Source of the DNA: Bdellovibrio sp.
GTDB taxonomy: Bacteria; Bdellovibrionota; Bacteriovoracia; Bacteriovoracales; Bacteriovoracaceae
DNA length: 64,000 nucleotides
Assembly (NCBI GenBank): GCA_016187935.1
Contig: JACPIU010000026.1
Span: 310,001 to 374,000 of the forward strand
Reading direction: 5' to 3'
Part shown: one piece after another, positions 3,187 through 11,614 of the stretch
How the letters are laid out: each line of letters begins with the position of its first letter
Numbering within the stretch: position 1 is the first letter of the stretch
The notes under the pieces: model-generated
Seen by the model: the letters and a program-made list of their open reading frames with translations, nothing else
Told to the model about the DNA's origin: nothing
Databases searched by the model: none
Made by a program: the position numbers and the translations under genes

Positions 3187-3792
3187 ATGAAATATGCCTT
3201 ATACGTTAGGGTTAGTACCGAGACGCAAAATCCAGAGATGCAAATCAATGAGCTTAAGGAGTACTGTGACTCCAGAGGCTGGAAAGTTTTTCAAATTTTC
3301 GTAGACAGATTGTCAGGGAAAAATACTAATCGCCCCGAATTCCAAGAAATGAATCGCCTGGCAAGATTAAGAAGATTTCAAGGAATTCTTGTTTATCGTC
3401 TTGATCGGGCCTTCAGGTCACTCGCAGATACAGTCAACCAGATTCAAGAATATAATAATCATGGGATTAAATTCACCTCTTTACATGATCATGGAATGGA
3501 CACAACTACCCCCTCGGGAACTTTGATGTTGCATCTAGTTTCTAGCTTTGCTCAATTTGAAGCCTCAATTATCCAAATGCGCGTTAAGTCCGGGATTGCA
3601 AACGCAAGAAGCAAAGGCATTAAACTTGGACGGCCCAGAAAAATAGACTTGCAAAAAGTAATTCAACTTAAAGAACGTGGGCTACGTTTATCTGAAATCG
3701 CAAAAGAATTGGGCGTGAACAAAAGCACAATCTCACGAGTGTTGCAAAATCCCATCCTAAATTCGAAGAAAAATGAAAACGGAAATGCCTAA
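3187..3792 (+). CDS. serine recombinase, resolvase/invertase family
   Basis: 201 residues with the small serine recombinase layout: the catalytic serine is Ser10 in YVRVST, followed by a VDRLSGKNTNRPEF segment, LVYRLDRAFRS with the conserved Asp and Arg residues, then FTSLHDHGMDTTTPSG and the long E-helix region SSFAQFEASIIQ. The C-terminus carries LGRPRK and a Hin-like helix-turn-helix (LRLSEIAKELGVNKSTISRVL). Such enzymes resolve cointegrates or invert segments by a Ser-linked double-strand exchange. The target site is not evident: I saw no long inverted pair flanking the gene. It is more likely a resolvase or dispersed invertase of the island than the integrase, since a tyrosine integrase is at the tRNA end. 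Confidence 0.92.
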   Translation: MKYALYVRVSTETQNPEMQINELKEYCDSRGWKVFQIFVDRLSGKNTNRPEFQEMNRLARLRRFQGILVYRLDRAFRSLADTVNQIQEYNNHGIKFTSLHDHGMDTTTPSGTLMLHLVSSFAQFEASIIQMRVKSGIANARSKGIKLGRPRKIDLQKVIQLKERGLRLSEIAKELGVNKSTISRVLQNPILNSKKNENGNA

Positions 3793-3889
3793 TAACACTA
3801 ATCTCTAAAAATCAAAACTGACTGATGCAAAAACAACTATTTTTGCAACACAAATACAACAGATCTGAATGTTTGTGCCTTCAACGTTT

Positions 3890-3906
3890 TGTGAAATCAT
3901 TTCACA
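3890..3906. promoter_or_regulatory. perfect palindrome TGTGAAAT-C-ATTTCACA, candidate operator
   Basis: Two perfect 8-base arms separated by one base, 123 bases upstream of the Xre-like regulator gene start. The same arms recur at 8585-8602 in front of the replication gene with a 2-base centre. A shared symmetric site near a helix-turn-helix regulator and near rep suggests an operator. Nearby at 3827-3846 is a second perfect inverted repeat, GCAAAAA and TTTTTGC, with a 6-base loop. Confidence 0.5.
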
Positions 3907-4028
3907 TTGGAGTTTATTCGTCAGGATTGATATTTGTCTATGAAGATAGATGGCAATTGCCTTAGGTCTATTGATGTCACTAGCAAGTCAAATAACCAAC
4001 ATGAACACTGTGTCCATGCTCGTAGAAT

Positions 4029-4394
4029 ATGTTTTGTTATAAAGAATTTGCCCTAGATAATCACACCGTGAATAAGCAAATCAAATTTAACAAAGTTCTT
4101 CTCGAACTTATGGAGAAAGAAGGGATTACTTTGCGAAAACTCGCAAAAATGACAGCAATTCCTCTTTCAACTCTTGGTTCGTATACATCTGGAAAAAAAT
4201 CAAGCTATTCCCCAGAGCATCTCGTAAAGCTTTCAGACGTCTTCGATGTCTCGGTTGACTATTTACTTTTAGGAACAGAACGAAAGTCAATAAACCTAAA
4301 CAACCTAAAGCTTGAAGAACTTTTTGCTGGCTTTGTTAAATTGAAAATTGAAAGGGTTATACCTGAGGACAAAATCAAATCTAAGGACGACTGA
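4029..4394 (+). CDS. Xre/CI-like transcriptional regulator of the island
   Basis: 121 residues from the first ATG. A GTG at 4068 is an equally plausible start because homology-like sequence begins there (NKQIKFNKVLLELMEKEG). The helix-turn-helix is at about residues 34-60 (ITLRKLAKMTAIPLSTLGSY), followed by the SGKK and SPEHLVKLSDVFDVSVDYLLLG signature common in CI-like Xre regulators. A short C-terminal tail (LEELFAGFVKLKIERV) may mediate dimerisation or ligand contact. No RecA-cleavable protease domain is present. It ends just before a secreted-protein gene and follows a 236-base gap with palindromes, so it probably governs its own promoter and perhaps rep. Confidence 0.8.
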   Translation: MFCYKEFALDNHTVNKQIKFNKVLLELMEKEGITLRKLAKMTAIPLSTLGSYTSGKKSSYSPEHLVKLSDVFDVSVDYLLLGTERKSINLNNLKLEELFAGFVKLKIERVIPEDKIKSKDD

Positions 4395-4396
4395 AT

Positions 4397-4714
4397 ATGA
4401 AATCAATCTATTTTATTACACTGATGGCAATATTTTTAGTTGCTAATTCTTTATTGGCTTCCGAGGCCGGCAAAGATTTTTTTAGTGGGATAGACATTTT
4501 CAAGGGAGTCACCAAAGAGCAATCAATTGAGACCTACAGAGAAGTCGAGTGCTACCAAAGAGGTGCTTATAAAAGATGCCCGACAAAAATCTGTCAGAAG
4601 ATCTGGTTGAATCAAGGTCTTAAGCTGATGAGTACTTATAAAAACAAGTATGGCCAAGAAGCGTTCATTGAAGCCACTGGTGGTAAAAGTGGTCAAAAGA
4701 TTTCATGCAAGTAA
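4397..4714 (+). CDS. small secreted cysteine-containing protein
   Basis: 105 residues with a clear signal peptide (hydrophobic core FITLMAIFLVANSLLA, likely cleavage after LLA-S-E around residue 21-23). The mature part has four cysteines (near residues 52, 61, 65 and 104) that could form two disulfides in the periplasm. I do not recognise the family. It starts 2 bases after the stop of the Xre gene and is followed 36 bases later by a membrane protein, so these three genes likely form one transcript. Confidence 0.65.
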   Translation: MKSIYFITLMAIFLVANSLLASEAGKDFFSGIDIFKGVTKEQSIETYREVECYQRGAYKRCPTKICQKIWLNQGLKLMSTYKNKYGQEAFIEATGGKSGQKISCK

Positions 4715-4750
4715 CCGTTCGTTCATTTCATTATCACAGAAGGTGGGTGT

Positions 4751-5758
4751 GTGAATCCAAGAATGATAAAAATACTAAAATGGAGCTTAGCTAGCTTAGG
4801 CATCCTACTCGGACTGAGTATACTATTTAAGGATCATGGGCCAAAATTATTAAATTTCGCGATACTTCTTTTTACCATCAATCTTGTTGCTTTCGTTGTT
4901 GGAATGATAAGGCCCACCACAATATTAAAAGATGAAAAAGCAAATCGTAAGAGCGTCCTTCTTAAAATTGGAATCCCCCTCATTGCATCCTTTATGTGGG
5001 CGAGAAGTATCGGTGATTCGCATAGAAACAATCAAACATTCTCAAAAGAAGCAGCACTTAGCGTCATTTCGAAGCAATGCTCTTTTGATCGAGGTGAGGC
5101 CGAGGTCGTAGGAGAGGTTCAAAATATTAGCTCCAAACCAATTGAACAACTTGCAGTAAGCGCCAACTTTCGCGATAGCAAGGGAGCCATCGTTGACAGC
5201 GCCATTGGTGGCGTCGATCTGCGACCACTCAATCCAGGAGAAAAGTCGGCATTTTCAGCACATTTATCGAAGGCCATTGGCGTTACGAACTGTGAAGTGG
5301 CATTTAAGATTTTCGGTGGAGATCGGGTTGCTCATGTTGACAACAGTCAATCAGCAACAGCAGTGCAAATAGCCCCAGATGCCGGTGCTCCGCCAGTAAC
5401 TCCCTGGGACCTAGTTCAGCAATCCATTGAACAAGCCTATAAGGAAAAACTCTGTCTCCGTTGCGGTGGTTTTTCATTTACACTCTATAGCGAGGGGATC
5501 ACCAACAAGAATTTGGCCAGAATTTATCTCGTAAATTACGTTGAAATTTATCCAGGAGATCATCGTACCAAACACAAGAAATGCTCATATGCACATGTCG
5601 CATACGATCAAGATTTCAAATCTACTGCAGATTTATTTGTATCCTTCTCTGACAAATCTGTTTGCAGCGGTTCGGATCAAATTTATGCTGGTGCAGGTGC
5701 AATGACATTCAAGCAGAGGGCCAACGAATTTAAGTATTCGGGGCTAATCCCAGATTAA
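4751..5758 (+). CDS. membrane protein with FxLYD-like domain
   Basis: 335 residues starting with GTG; a GGTGGG stretch just upstream is the ribosome site. Two or three hydrophobic segments at the N-terminus (about residues 12-25, 30-52 and 70-86) anchor it. The following part, about residues 105-190, looks like an FxLYD beta-sandwich (a variant of EVQNIS...IEQLAVSANFRDSKG...LNPGEKSAF), a fold found in surface-exposed or periplasmic domains. The C-terminal 120 residues have a CLRCGG motif and more cysteines and are unrecognised. With the adjacent secreted protein this resembles an envelope-modifying cargo pair, possibly for exclusion or superinfection immunity. That is speculation. Confidence 0.6.
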   Translation: MNPRMIKILKWSLASLGILLGLSILFKDHGPKLLNFAILLFTINLVAFVVGMIRPTTILKDEKANRKSVLLKIGIPLIASFMWARSIGDSHRNNQTFSKEAALSVISKQCSFDRGEAEVVGEVQNISSKPIEQLAVSANFRDSKGAIVDSAIGGVDLRPLNPGEKSAFSAHLSKAIGVTNCEVAFKIFGGDRVAHVDNSQSATAVQIAPDAGAPPVTPWDLVQQSIEQAYKEKLCLRCGGFSFTLYSEGITNKNLARIYLVNYVEIYPGDHRTKHKKCSYAHVAYDQDFKSTADLFVSFSDKSVCSGSDQIYAGAGAMTFKQRANEFKYSGLIPD

Positions 5759-6236: not shown

Positions 6237-6494
6237 ATGGAACAAGAAAAAAAGATTGAACCAAAAACGGTCAATCTCACCAAACTGAAATCGCTTAATA
6301 ATCAACAATTAGAAGAGAGGATTAAGGAAATCCCAATCAAGATCAAAAACAAGCAAGATTACTACTCAAAAATGCACCAAACCAATCTGGAAAGACTGAA
6401 GATTTACGTGGCCTATAAACGTGAAGAGGAGGCCGCGTGCAAGAAGATGCTGGCGGACCGACAAAGGCCCACGACTGAAAAAAAAGTCAACTAG
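6237..6494 (+). CDS. 85-residue charged helical protein; N-terminal part of a putative frameshift product
   Basis: The start is secure: a GGAGGTC ribosome site lies directly upstream of the ATG. The protein is rich in Lys, Glu and Gln and predicted to be one or two long helices or a coiled coil (residues 12-70, LNNQQLEERIKEIPIKIKNKQ...). I recognise no family. It ends in the frame GAA AAA AAA GTC AAC TAG, where the run of eight A (6478-6485) can slip into the -1 frame and continue into the 361 codons that follow. If no shift occurs the 85-residue form is released. Confidence 0.7.
   Translation: MEQEKKIEPKTVNLTKLKSLNNQQLEERIKEIPIKIKNKQDYYSKMHQTNLERLKIYVAYKREEEAACKKMLADRQRPTTEKKVN
6463..6494 (+). 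promoter_or_regulatory. candidate -1 ribosomal frameshift site (A8 run)
   Basis: Eight A bases at 6478-6485 give the zero-frame codons AAA AAA (6480-6485), which can re-pair one base back. An internal Shine-Dalgarno-like AAAGG lies at 6463-6467, 10 bases before the run, the spacing that stimulates slippage in dnaX. The zero frame stops 6 bases after the run (TAG 6492-6494). A hairpin GTGGTC (6507-6512) with GGCCAC (6522-6527) is 21 bases beyond the run, farther than usual. Confidence 0.5.
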
Positions 6495-7570
6495 ACCTAT
6501 TTGATGGTGGTCATCCTAGGCGGCCACACTTAAAGGAAGAGAGAGAGATTCCCAGGTTAGTATTAGTTCAAGACGAAGACCTTTCAATAAAAGAGGTCGA
6601 TCTCATATCTGCTAGATGTTCGTGCGCAAGTTTCTTACATAATGGCCCAAGTGAGCATCTTAAACTGGCTGGTGATATTTACATTAACAAGGGAAGGAAA
6701 TACCGCTTCTTAATCTATAGTGCATTCCACAAAGAGGTGCGGCGGGGAAATCTCCTTTTGGGTACAAGCTGGGCGGAAATTATTCAAGTCATAAGTGGTG
6801 AATCTGGTCTGATTAAGTATTGCCACAAAATTGTTTTTGAAGAGACCAGGAACATTGAACTTTATTACGACCTTATCTCTACATCAAAATCAGCGTTACA
6901 ACTGGCCCAAAGTTTAATTTTGAGCATTAAAAAGTGGGAATTAAAATGCCTCCCTAATCACACAAAAAACTGGATCGATGGCCACGAGAGTTATCTGGTA
7001 AAACCAGATTTAACAAATGAAGACTTTCTTAGCGCCTCCACACTAACAGAGGCCTATCGCTCTTGGTTTTTCTTTAAAAAACACAAAATCCGACGGGAAG
7101 AACTAAAGGAACTGTTTCAAAGAAAGCATAATCAAAATAACAAACTGACAACCTTTCTAAGGCATTCGGGAACATCTGGTTACGATTTTATGGTGGCTTT
7201 AGAGCTGTCACTCGATGTCCTCGATTGGAATGAAATTAATCGGCTGAAGGTTAGAAACGTTCCTACAGAGACAGGTTTTATACCAAGATTCGAAAGATAT
7301 GTTTATGACTGCCATACATGGGCCGGGAAAGCACTGCTGAAAAAGCACTTTGATAAATTTATTCGCGATGACGACTTGGAAGGTGTCGGACTTGATTTGA
7401 GGTTTAGCGGGTTGATTACTGCCCTGTACAAGCGGGAGAAGGCTTTTGAAATCGGAGAGCAGGAGTGGATTTGGGATAAGGTAAAAATTGAGGCGACGAA
7501 ATTAAAAGGAGTTATGAACCTAGAAAGACTGTTTTACTCATCGATTTTTTCACAATCTAGGAAAAATTGA
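6479..7570 (+). CDS. unassigned protein lacking its own start; C-terminal part of a putative frameshift fusion
   Basis: The frame is open from just after a TGA at 6476-6478 to a stop at 7568-7570. It has no ATG, GTG or TTG until a GTG at 6737, yet the stretch before that GTG reads as good protein (IPRLVLVQDEDLSIKEVDLI, then LAGDIYINKGRKYRFLIYSAF). The likeliest explanation is entry by -1 frameshift from the upstream ORF, giving 83 + 361 = 444 residues. The first residues after the shift are SQLDLFDGG; QLDLF matches the beta-clamp binding consensus QL(S/D)LF. The rest is mixed alpha/beta with no motif I can name. Alternatives are a disrupted gene or translation from GTG 6737 (277 residues). 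Confidence 0.6.
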   Translation, partial: KKSQLDLFDGGHPRRPHLKEEREIPRLVLVQDEDLSIKEVDLISARCSCASFLHNGPSEHLKLAGDIYINKGRKYRFLIYSAFHKEVRRGNLLLGTSWAEIIQVISGESGLIKYCHKIVFEETRNIELYYDLISTSKSALQLAQSLILSIKKWELKCLPNHTKNWIDGHESYLVKPDLTNEDFLSASTLTEAYRSWFFFKKHKIRREELKELFQRKHNQNNKLTTFLRHSGTSGYDFMVALELSLDVLDWNEINRLKVRNVPTETGFIPRFERYVYDCHTWAGKALLKKHFDKFIRDDDLEGVGLDLRFSGLITALYKREKAFEIGEQEWIWDKVKIEATKLKGVMNLERLFYSSIFSQSRKN

Positions 7571-7609
7571 GTTTTAAGATTCGGCTTAAAATTGTCCGAT
7601 AAGCTTGCT

Positions 7610-8572
7610 ATGAAAAGAAATTTTCAAGAGATGTTAAATAGAATTGAAGATGAAGAGGATAATAATTTTCTCGACCAGATATTTAAGTATCAAGAAGAAT
7701 GTTTGGATGCAGCGAATATTCTTTCTGAAGATTATATTGAATGCAATGAAGGTAATTTATCTGATGTTGAAGAATTGATTCGTAAGATACCTCAAAAGGT
7801 ATTTGTCGCTGACATGAATATTGTTTTTGATTTTATCTTTGTTTTCGCTAAATTTTATGTAGAAATTAAAAAAGATATACCTCGAAATGTAAGAAGTTCT
7901 GTTATCGACAATTTCTTGCAGCTAAACCCGAGTGATATTTTTGTTGTAATGAATGAATTGGCTTTTTTTAGCAAAATTACAGGTGCATTGGGAAATGAAG
8001 ACCCATTTAGCGAAATTGATTTTTTCAAAGACGTACCGCTAGAATTGAGAAGCTCTTGGATAGTTGAAAAACAAATAGATAGTATGATTGAAAATGGTCT
8101 GATTTTAAAAACTCAAGAGTTGGAGGAAGAGATTGAACATTGTATTGATTTTTTAACTTATTGCTCAACTATGCATGGCGTATCCAAGAAAAATGTAGCC
8201 GAAATTAGAAAGAATTTCAATAATTACATTAGCTTTGGTAGTGATTCCAGCCGTGAGCTTACCTCCCAACTAAAAAGTAAGAAGATTAATTTTAAATGCA
8301 ATAATGAAATGTTCTTTATTCTCTATTTTTCAAGTGTCTTTGAGTTAGTCTATGGAATGCGTCGAAACGAATCTTATGAATTGATGTCAGCCCTTTATGA
8401 TTTAATTATTAATCCCAATGACCCACTTGTGGATTCCGAAAATAAAGAAGAATTAATTAAAAAAAGGATCAAGAGAACTTTTGGCCCAAAAGCGATGTCG
8501 GGAAATTCTGATGTAAAGAAGATAAGGGCTATCGCAAAGATTCGAGTGAGATCACTAAAGCTCATAAAATGA
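7610..8572 (+). CDS. unassigned acidic helical protein
   Basis: 320 residues from the ATG at 7610; a TTG at 7592 is an alternative start, and neither has a good ribosome site. The protein is acidic and mostly helical in its first two thirds, with a strongly basic C-terminus (KKRIKRTFGPKA..., VKKIRAIAKIRVRSLKLIK) that could bind nucleic acid. No catalytic motif is visible and I do not recognise the family. It follows the putative frameshift gene by about 40 bases and precedes the replication gene, so it may belong to the replication or maintenance module of the island. Confidence 0.6.
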   Translation: MKRNFQEMLNRIEDEEDNNFLDQIFKYQEECLDAANILSEDYIECNEGNLSDVEELIRKIPQKVFVADMNIVFDFIFVFAKFYVEIKKDIPRNVRSSVIDNFLQLNPSDIFVVMNELAFFSKITGALGNEDPFSEIDFFKDVPLELRSSWIVEKQIDSMIENGLILKTQELEEEIEHCIDFLTYCSTMHGVSKKNVAEIRKNFNNYISFGSDSSRELTSQLKSKKINFKCNNEMFFILYFSSVFELVYGMRRNESYELMSALYDLIINPNDPLVDSENKEELIKKRIKRTFGPKAMSGNSDVKKIRAIAKIRVRSLKLIK

Positions 8573-8616: not shown

Positions 8617-8800
8617 CAAATTAGCGGGACCGTTTTATCCAAAAATAAAAAACTTTGGACCTGTTGTTTATTCCTAGAAATCGCTATGAATAGAAAATTA
8701 CTTTGGTAGTAATGCTCTATAAGAGCAAGCGTACTTTTGATAAGTGAATTGGACCCGTATTGGATACGAAATAGGAAGAACTGCATACAATGGAGGAAAT

Positions 8801-9868
8801 ATGATAGATACGATTGAGATAGAAGGGGTCGCGCCGAGAGCAGTCATTGATCAATTGCAGATGGCGATGCTTGAACACGATGGTGATGAGGGTGCCGTTG
8901 TCAAAATGAAACAATGGCGATTCCATGGAAACTGCAAAAAAGTGCAGACGATTAATCAAGAGGGCAAATTCCTAGAGATCAGGTTTAATAACGAAGGGGA
9001 AGTCCCTCCAGAATTTGAAAACTGTCTTATTATTCGCACCCACCTAAGTCAGTTTAAAACATTTAATAATTTTTTAAACTGGGCTGAACGGTTCCGACCA
9101 CAAGAGAATTGGATATGGTTATTTAATAATTTCAAAATAAAAAGGATGGATTTGGCTATCGATATTCCTTTTAGATGCGAAACAGTTGCAAAATCATTGC
9201 ATAGGCCAGGTGTAAGAATTGTTGAACGTTTTAAAGGAAAACAAAAAAGCAAAAAATTTAGCAAACGTAACAGAGACCATGAATATGCATTCCCTCCTGA
9301 AGATATTAGACCAGGATTTACTTACTACTGGGGCTGTCGCCCTGAGGTCATGCTGTGTTATGAAAGAGAACTTGAGATTCTAGATGTAGATGGACGTGTT
9401 AAAAGAATATTAGGCTGTAGAATTGAAATGAGATATACAAAACCGTCCAAGGTTCCAGTTAAGAACTTTTTCGATGTTGAAGCGTATCTGAACTTTAATC
9501 CGTATTCAAAAATTACAACCAATGAAATGAAGCTAACACAGCTGTATCCTGCAAAGCCGGCAATTCAGAGACTCATTAATGGATTCATCGCAAGAGTTGA
9601 CGAGATAGGTTTTAGTCAGGCGAGAAAAGAATATAGCGTCGATAGCACATACATAAAAAAGATTGGTCCATACTTTGGAACTGTTGAATCGATTGATCTC
9701 AAGGGTATGTATGACCAAAGCATATTGAATTTTTTTGGAGATACACCCTTTATTCCTATTCATTGTGATTCAGTGCGAATCGAAAACCCGGATAAAGATG
9801 ATTCAGCATGGAGACCTTTAATGATGGGAGCGGATGAGGGATATTCGTTTCCTGGGCAAAATTTATAG
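8801..9868 (+). CDS. replication initiation protein, Rep_trans/RstA-like
   Basis: 355 residues from the ATG at 8801, which is preceded by GGAGGAAAT; the frame continues upstream to 8744 but without a ribosome site. The architecture resembles the Rep_trans family (phage CTX RstA, Gram-positive plasmid Rep and ICE initiators): an N-terminal beta-rich part, the signature IKRMDLAIDIP at about residues 114-124, a YYWGCRPEVMLCYERE segment and an IEMRYTK strand. Such initiators nick the double-strand origin with a tyrosine and start rolling-circle replication. Tyrosines in the central region are candidates, but I cannot say which. The presence of rep in an integrated element implies replication after excision. 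Confidence 0.7.
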   Translation: MIDTIEIEGVAPRAVIDQLQMAMLEHDGDEGAVVKMKQWRFHGNCKKVQTINQEGKFLEIRFNNEGEVPPEFENCLIIRTHLSQFKTFNNFLNWAERFRPQENWIWLFNNFKIKRMDLAIDIPFRCETVAKSLHRPGVRIVERFKGKQKSKKFSKRNRDHEYAFPPEDIRPGFTYYWGCRPEVMLCYERELEILDVDGRVKRILGCRIEMRYTKPSKVPVKNFFDVEAYLNFNPYSKITTNEMKLTQLYPAKPAIQRLINGFIARVDEIGFSQARKEYSVDSTYIKKIGPYFGTVESIDLKGMYDQSILNFFGDTPFIPIHCDSVRIENPDKDDSAWRPLMMGADEGYSFPGQNL

Positions 9869-10043: not shown

Positions 10044-10289
10044 ATGAAAAATATATCTTTCCTTAGCAATACCTTGAGCGGTTTGAATAATAGTGATAGA
10101 CAGCTGAAGCTCTTTTATAGTCAACAAATATGGCGCATCGAAGAAGTCGCCGAGTTTCTGCGTGTTTCCGTTGGACATGTGTACAACTTGGCTTCAAGAC
10201 GAGAAATCCCGTTTAGAAAGAAAGGTGGCAAGTTGTTCTTTTTTCCCTCTGAAATTCTGAAATGGATCGATGAAGGAGTTAAAGAATGA
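10044..10289 (+). CDS. excisionase-like HTH protein
   Basis: 81 residues from the ATG at 10044; a TTG at 9984 would add 20 hydrophobic residues that do not fit the family. The C-terminal half is a MerR/excisionase-type HTH (WRIEEVAEFLRVSVGHVYNL, then REIPFRKKGGKLFFFPSEILKWID), the helix_turn_helix_17 or DNA-binding excisionase layout. It overlaps the integrase start by 4 bases (ATGA), indicating translational coupling. Its likely role is directing the integrase toward excision, or repressing it. Confidence 0.8.
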   Translation: MKNISFLSNTLSGLNNSDRQLKLFYSQQIWRIEEVAEFLRVSVGHVYNLASRREIPFRKKGGKLFFFPSEILKWIDEGVKE

Positions 10290-11518
10290 AAGAGAAATCA
10301 CAGCGTTATCTTACGCTTAAGCACCACCCAGGTATCCGAAAGGATACAACAAGCAATTCATACGTTGTCACGAAAAGTTTTAAAGGTAAGCGTTACTATG
10401 AATCCTTTGATGGCCTTCGTGATGCGGCTGAATGGAAAAATAGTTTTAACCCAAATGTGCCAGCGTTTAAATTAACTCATGGCCTTAACACTAGAGTGAT
10501 TGAATTGAATGGGCGAGATCGTGGTATGAATTTTGAGAAAGCTTGGCTTTTGTATCTACAAATCAAAGTCGCGACTCTTGAGCAATCTACTATCGATTTC
10601 ATAAAAAAATATACTGAGTTTTTTTTCACGCTTGGCCCAATGAATATGGCTCACATTTTTCCAGAGATTATTGATGAGGTTGTGAATAGCAAAAAGCAAA
10701 AGGCGATTCTGACTAATAGTAGGCGGATGAACTTTGACCACCCTCTTACCCAGCTCAGAGCATTTTTTAATTGGTATCAGGAAAATTACGATTTCAGTTT
10801 TAGAAACCCAGTACTCAAACGTCATTTCTCCATGGGGATGATCAAGAAACCGGTCGAGCGAAATAAAAAGATGATGCCAGATGAGGTAAATCTTTTCTTC
10901 TCTGCACTTCCTGATTTCTACCGAGATTTTGCTATAGTTCAATTCTACTTAGCTAGTCGGGTATCAGAAGTGGCCGGGCTTCAATTCTCAAGCATTGATT
11001 TTAAAAATAGCTCAATTCTTGTGATGCATGTAGTTGTCTGGGATCACTGTAAACGATTCATGCAGCTCAGGCCTTACACAAAAAATAAGGCGGTTCGGTA
11101 CTGCCACATGAATGAAACCCTTGAGACAATACTCAGGCGGCGTTTAACGGCCAAAGCAAGCGGTTCTGATTACGTTTTTCATGACGATGGTGGCGCACTG
11201 TCATATAGATCAATTCAGCACGCCTATAACAGGGCGCTAAAGAAATGCGGTTTGTCTGATAAGTATTCAAGCACCCACATCATGCGACACACAATGGCAA
11301 CCATCACGCGACTTGTAACAGGTAGCTTAGATGCCACTCAAGCTGTCACTGGCCACAAGGATTCAAAACTTGTTCAGCACTATGCAAGCGTTCCAGAAGG
11401 GGCGCAGAAAAATGCGGTGATACAAGTGGAGGCATACATGAAAAAATCTCAGGCGTGCGAGCAACTGCGAGCAAATCAAAATTTTCAGGAAGGAAATTTT
11501 GTAGTTTCAGGAAGATAG
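10286..11518 (+). CDS. tyrosine recombinase integrase of the island
   Basis: 410 residues. The catalytic domain shows Arg in YLASRVSEVAGLQ (about residue 223), the HxxR box in STHIMRHTMAT (about 328-334), the conserved His in TGHKDSKLVQ (about 356) and the nucleophile Tyr in QHYASVPEGA (about 365). An N-terminal arm-binding region and a SAM-like core-binding domain precede it (EKAWLLYLQIK...). The gene points at, and stops 9 bases from, the tRNA-Ser 3' end, the standard arrangement for an integrase that uses that tRNA gene as attB. The C-terminal tail after the tyrosine is about 45 residues long. Confidence 0.93.
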   Translation: MKEKSQRYLTLKHHPGIRKDTTSNSYVVTKSFKGKRYYESFDGLRDAAEWKNSFNPNVPAFKLTHGLNTRVIELNGRDRGMNFEKAWLLYLQIKVATLEQSTIDFIKKYTEFFFTLGPMNMAHIFPEIIDEVVNSKKQKAILTNSRRMNFDHPLTQLRAFFNWYQENYDFSFRNPVLKRHFSMGMIKKPVERNKKMMPDEVNLFFSALPDFYRDFAIVQFYLASRVSEVAGLQFSSIDFKNSSILVMHVVVWDHCKRFMQLRPYTKNKAVRYCHMNETLETILRRRLTAKASGSDYVFHDDGGALSYRSIQHAYNRALKKCGLSDKYSSTHIMRHTMATITRLVTGSLDATQAVTGHKDSKLVQHYASVPEGAQKNAVIQVEAYMKKSQACEQLRANQNFQEGNFVVSGR

Positions 11519-11526
11519 AGATTAAA

Positions 11527-11575
11527 TGGCGGAGAACAAGGGATTCGAACCCTCGAACGGTTGCCCGTTACATGC
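11527..11575. other. probable attachment site (right end) within tRNA-Ser 3' half
   Basis: Tyrosine integrases encoded next to a tRNA gene usually recombine within its 3' half or T-loop, restoring an intact tRNA. Here the integrase side of the junction is the CCA end at 11527. The exact core cannot be defined without the left end. Confidence 0.45.
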
Positions 11576-11614
11576 TTTCCAAGCATGCGCCTTCGACCAC
11601 TCGGCCAATTCTCC
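11527..11614 (-). tRNA. tRNA-Ser (GGA)
   Basis: 88 bases on the minus strand. The acceptor stem GGAGAAT pairs with GTTCTCC, the anticodon stem is CATGC/GCATG with loop TTGGAAA (anticodon GGA), a long variable arm follows (AACGGGCAACCGTT), and the T-arm is AGGGTTCGAATCCCT. The discriminator G and CCA are encoded. A long variable arm and GGA anticodon identify tRNA-Ser reading UCC/UCU. It is the integration target of the neighbouring island. Confidence 0.96.

What the first reader, a model, noticed from the sequence alone, without database searches (positions are those of the whole stretch)
6237..7570. Putative programmed -1 frameshift joining an 85-codon ORF to a startless 361-codon frame
The frame at 6479-7567 is open and protein-like but has no ATG, GTG or TTG in its first 258 bases. 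It begins right after a TGA that touches an A8 run (6478-6485), where the well-started upstream ORF is 6 bases from its own stop. A slip on AAA AAA enters that frame exactly and gives a 444-residue product. An AAAGG lies 10 bases before the run, the spacing of the dnaX stimulator. Alternatives are a recent one-base deletion in a homopolymer or a sequencing error.
Basis: partly seen in the sequence, partly recalled or inferred. Interest (0 to 1): 0.8.

Follow-up and report, generated by a model that had tools for sequence, protein, structure and literature searches.

The report
Possible frameshift-made fusion protein
In a mobile DNA element of a Bdellovibrio-like bacterium, a small gene runs into a larger one that lacks a normal start codon, and a run of eight A's where they overlap could let the ribosome slip one base and make a fused, replication-type protein; this is plausible and has one supporting distant relative, but it is not proven.

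Summary
Both frames are real genes with homologs, in a ~13-kb integrative element at tRNA-Ser. Gene 2 is distantly related to the RarA/MgsA C-terminal domain. The evidence is split. For a -1 slip: the only other locus with an ORF1 homolog plus gene 2 (L011) also has an in-frame A_AAA_AAG whose -1 slip enters gene 2 without a stop (about 3% by chance, Lys-matched). The stretch after the A-run encodes QLDLF, the best beta-clamp-binding motif (chance about 2e-4, noticed post hoc), and similar motifs sit at RarA N-termini in this phylum. Against: no homolog is fused, L011 gene 2 has an overlapping GTG, L010 and L002 gene 2 start on their own, and no RNA structure or SD-like stimulator stands out. 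ATT 6548, with an SD and placed where L010 gene 2 starts, is a non-frameshift alternative; this genome's infC also lacks a usual start. Slip fusion leads (~0.45), ahead of a non-canonical start (~0.25) and a broken frame or sequence error (~0.2).

The parts
6237..6494 (+). ORF1, 85 aa, Lys/Glu-rich, probably coiled coil
   Evidence: Strong SD; homologs in L011 (35% over 68 aa, pairwise E=1e-12) and L033 (38% over 69 aa)
6478..6485 (+). A8 run; slippery heptamer A_AAA_AAA at 6479-6485 in ORF1's frame
   Evidence: Sequence; A_AAA_AAG at the corresponding overlap in L011 1336-1342
6476..6478 (+). TGA in gene 2's frame that abuts the run
   Evidence: Sequence
6437..6439 (+). GTG in gene 2's frame with SD GAGGAGG; cut off by TGA 6476
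   Evidence: SD -12.0 kcal/mol
6479..7570 (+). Gene 2 frame (363 codons plus stop), RarA-C-like protein
   Evidence: Homologs L010, L011, L002, phages; hhalign to RarA E=1.9e-7
6488..6502 (+). QLDLF, candidate beta-clamp-binding motif
   Evidence: Fits QLxLF (PMC11139829); 3 strict matches in 244,707 six-frame residues
6548..6550 (+). ATT, candidate non-canonical start of gene 2 (SD AAGGA at 6533-6537)
   Evidence: SD -5.6, as good as 13% of internal near-cognate codons; L011 homology begins at 6551; aligns with L010 GTG start
6617..6658 (+). SWIM-like segment CSC..SEH, third Cys replaced by Ser
   Evidence: Alignment A2; pattern only
6701..6853 (+). RarA/MgsA collar-like segment (SAFHKEVRRGN..W..FEETRN)
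8744..9868 (+). Rep_trans-like replication gene of the same element
   Evidence: PF02486 E=0.0075, below its cut-off
10286..11518 (+). Tyrosine integrase next to tRNA-Ser 11527-11614
   Evidence: PF00589 1.3e-17

Best explanation
ORF1 and gene 2 are an overlapping pair in an integrative element. A minority of decoding events slip -1 at A_AAA_AAA (the ribosome, or RNA polymerase adding one A on A8). This makes a 444-residue fusion: ORF1, then a QLDLF clamp-binding motif, then the SWIM-like and RarA-C-like domains. Normal decoding makes the 85-aa ORF1 product alone. Shown: the sequence anatomy, homology of each half, and the L011 heptamer. Inferred: that slipping occurs, that the linker is translated, and that the fusion binds the sliding clamp and serves replication or repair of the element.
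For: In-frame heptamer and an open -1 frame in the window. L011, the only other locus with an ORF1 homolog plus gene 2, has in-frame A_AAA_AAG with the same exit frame and no stop; 3.1% of Lys-matched pieces have one. QLDLF lies between slip site and domain, chance about 2e-4; RarA N-termini in this phylum carry QIDLF or MDLF, and this genome's own RarA carries QPDLPF. L033, an ORF1 homolog with no gene 2 found nearby, has no heptamer.
Against: No fused homolog in 369 genomes. L010 and L002 gene 2 start on their own. L011 gene 2 has a GTG overlapping ORF1's stop. No downstream structure (z about 0; 8% of random positions as structured) and no SD-like stimulator. L011's linker lacks the clamp motif. 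Only two pairs are known.
Confidence: 0.45

Rival explanations
1. Two separate genes. Gene 2 starts at ATT 6548 with its own SD (or at an ATG that recently became ATT), perhaps helped by ribosomes ending ORF1 53 nt upstream. The A-run is coincidence.
For: Homology with L011 begins at 6551 and the ATT aligns with L010's GTG start. L010 has a similar gap, 48 nt. SD AAGGA, -5.6. The AlphaFold model, poor overall, is disordered to residue 27, i.e. past the ATT codon at residue 24. infC of this genome also lacks ATG/GTG/TTG before its conserved start. Published frame-transition criteria treat homology split at the junction as adjacent genes (PMC3711429).
Against: AUU starts are very rare (infC and one other E. 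coli gene, PMC1780047). 13% of internal near-cognate codons have as good an SD. It leaves QLDLF and the L011 heptamer as chance.
Confidence: 0.25
2. Broken frame: a one-base indel in the A-run of a formerly fused gene, a nonsense change at TGA 6476 in a gene starting at GTG 6437, or a sequencing error.
For: A mobile-element gene beside a homopolymer is a usual place for decay (general knowledge). GTG 6437 has the strongest SD tested.
Against: 340 following codons and all neighbouring genes are intact. 24 long A/T runs in the window's ORFs show no break, though broken ORFs would partly escape that count. L011 shows the same one-base offset in another assembly.
Confidence: 0.2
3. UGA readthrough: gene 2 starts at GTG 6437 and UGA 6476 is read as an amino acid.
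For: Very strong SD and right frame. L011's gene-2 frame also reads GTG CAA ... TGA AAA AAA.
Against: The SD-like sequence almost touches that GTG in L011, and the shared codons follow from ORF1's conserved Cys-Lys and Glu-Lys-Lys. No other sign of UGA recoding was seen.
Confidence: 0.05

Closest known systems
dnaX (tau/gamma) and IS-element -1 frameshift genes using A_AAA_AAR
   Same: In-frame A_AAA_AAA or A_AAA_AAG, -1 direction, mobile-element or clamp-loader-like context
   Different: No stimulatory hairpin or SD found; the shift would join two genes that are separate in relatives; not shown experimentally
RarA/MgsA replication-associated AAA+ protein
   Same: Collar-like SAFHKxxRRGN..W segment; clamp-like motif near the N-terminus
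   Different: No AAA+ ATPase; an added SWIM-like segment and a different C-terminal region
Rhodobacter phage RcTiptonus gp84 and relatives (hypothetical proteins)
   Same: Same SWIM-like plus RarA-C-like architecture and conserved C-terminal DxHTxxGK
   Different: Single gene with its own start; no ORF1 found in phage records

Membership tests
-1 programmed frameshift gene | Slippery X_XXY_YYZ heptamer in the 0 frame, -1 frame open beyond it | tested here: met
-1 programmed frameshift gene | Slip site conserved in homologs | tested here: inconclusive
   Present in the one other ORF1+gene-2 locus, L011; L010 and L002 have separate starts
-1 programmed frameshift gene | Stimulatory structure or SD-like element (usual, not obligatory in bacteria) | tested here: not met
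-1 programmed frameshift gene | Fusion product made in the cell | not testable with these tools
   Needs reporter or mass spectrometry
RarA/MgsA | AAA+ ATPase with Walker A and B | tested here: not met
   No Pfam AAA match; only the collar segment aligns
RarA/MgsA | C-terminal collar domain (PF16193) | tested here: inconclusive
   hhalign E=1.9e-7 over 31 columns; single-sequence Pfam hit only E=0.012, in one member
SWIM zinc finger | CxC...CxH | tested here: not met
   Window has CSC..SEH; L010 and L011 keep CxC..CEH; no Pfam match
Translationally coupled adjacent genes | Downstream usual start codon next to the upstream stop | tested here: not met
   No usual start near 6494 in gene 2's frame; met in L011 (GTGA)

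The most novel reading that the evidence does not exclude
A family of integrative elements in this bacterial phylum uses a conserved A-run slip to attach an otherwise free coiled-coil protein to a clamp-binding RarA-C-like protein: a dnaX-like two-product switch in a mobile element.
Probability: 0.35. Interest if true: 0.6.

Novelty: new member of a known kind. Interest (0 to 1): 0.42.

Why it matters
If true, it is a recoding case outside the few well-studied genes and transposons, in a clamp-loader-related gene of a mobile element, and gene callers would miss the clamp motif and split the protein. If false, it shows how a non-canonical start beside an A-run imitates frameshifting.

Tried and rejected
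Start at GTG 6737: it would remove the SWIM-like part, cut inside the most conserved motif, and has no SD (-1.6). dnaX-type stimulator: not above background. Codon usage of 6479-6547: uninformative (12% of coding pieces score as low, 27% of wrong-frame pieces as high). L003 (G137) match: an unrelated large ORF. No homologs of gene 2 or ORF1 in plasmids; none of ORF1 in viral contigs or phage records; none of gene 2 in genome contigs. A search of genome contigs with the Rep-like protein found nothing. AlphaFold model of gene 2: poor (mean pLDDT 43.5); Foldseek hits are not significant, though RarA C-termini rank near the top.

Full report
Observation. ORF1 ends ACT GAA AAA AAA GTC AAC TAG. The heptamer A_AAA_AAA (6479-6485) is in its frame, and a -1 slip reads AGT CAA CTA GAC CTA TTT GAT, giving 444 residues. 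The second frame has no ATG, GTG or TTG until 6737.

Setting. The window is G000:C19:310001-374000. The pair lies in an integrative element with a tyrosine integrase, an excisionase-like HTH protein and a Rep-like gene, ending at tRNA-Ser 11527-11614. A 20-nt match to the tRNA-Ser end recurs 1.5 and 2.4 kb left of the window, next to genes that read as host dnaX, ybaB and recR (named from their sequence, not searched), so the element spans about 13-14 kb.

Both halves are genes. ORF1 has homologs in two other genomes of the phylum (L011, pairwise E=1e-12; L033). Gene 2 has homologs in L010 (30% over 345 columns), L011 (27% over 365), L002 and several large phages. The family carries a SWIM-like CxC..CxH segment (degenerate in the window) and a segment related to the RarA/MgsA C-terminal collar (hhalign E=1.9e-7 over 31 columns; PDB 3ctd and 3pvs at weak E-values). 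It has no ATPase domain.

Comparative test of the fusion. No homolog is fused in the 369 phylum genomes searched. L002 and L010 gene 2 start on their own; L010 has a strong SD, 48 nt after an upstream small ORF that is not detectably related to ORF1. L011 is the only other ORF1 plus gene-2 pair. Its gene 2 has a GTG overlapping ORF1's stop, with a weak SD (-3.5). Yet L011 ORF1 also contains GCT GAA AAA AAG AAA, an A_AAA_AAG heptamer from which a -1 slip enters gene 2 with no stop. In both loci the gene-2 frame opens right at the run, after an abutting TGA. Among 18-codon pieces of similar GC and Lys content 3.1% hold such a heptamer (5 of 159); without Lys matching, 0.9%. L033, an ORF1 homolog with an IS-type transposase downstream and no gene 2 found nearby, has none. 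These are small numbers.

The linker. Between the slip site and the domain, the frame encodes QLDLF, which fits QLxLF, the highest-affinity clamp-binding consensus (PMC11139829). RarA proteins of the phylum begin with QIDLF or MDLF in some members, and this genome's RarA has QPDLPF near its N-terminus. This suggests that the linker is translated, which an ATT start would not do. It is inference: L011's linker lacks the motif.

Mechanism. I rank a -1 slip (ribosomal; or transcriptional, since runs of eight or more are typical for that, PMC3711429) at about 0.45. A non-canonical ATT start is about 0.25, with homology position, an SD and the infC precedent on its side. A broken or misread frame is about 0.2, UGA readthrough about 0.05, and about 0.05 is left for others. 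The usual stimulators were not found, so any ribosomal slip is expected to be inefficient.

Novelty. Slip-made fusions at A_AAA_AAR are a known kind; if real, this is a new member. Gene 2 itself matched no Pfam family above its curated cut-off and no PHROG convincingly.

Noticed in passing
L037 (G000 C12, ~199 kb): infC of this genome has no ATG/GTG/TTG between the upstream stop and the conserved IF3 start; a near-cognate start (ATA or ATT) is likely.
   Followed up: partly
L038 17552-18490 (about window -2449 to -1511): Two att-like copies of the tRNA-Ser end sequence flank a pair of small minus-strand ORFs that look like a toxin-antitoxin module, just left of the element.
   Followed up: partly
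window 3187-5758; L034, L035, L036: Resolvase, HTH and 335-aa genes recur singly or together in loci of relatives that carry gene 2, suggesting a family of related elements.
   Followed up: partly
L033 ~3345-4560: An IS-type transposase pair begins about 50 nt after the ORF1 homolog; gene 2 was not found in the 9 kb fetched.
   Followed up: partly
window 7592-8572: 326-aa ORF after gene 2, TTG start with weak SD, no family match.
   Followed up: no
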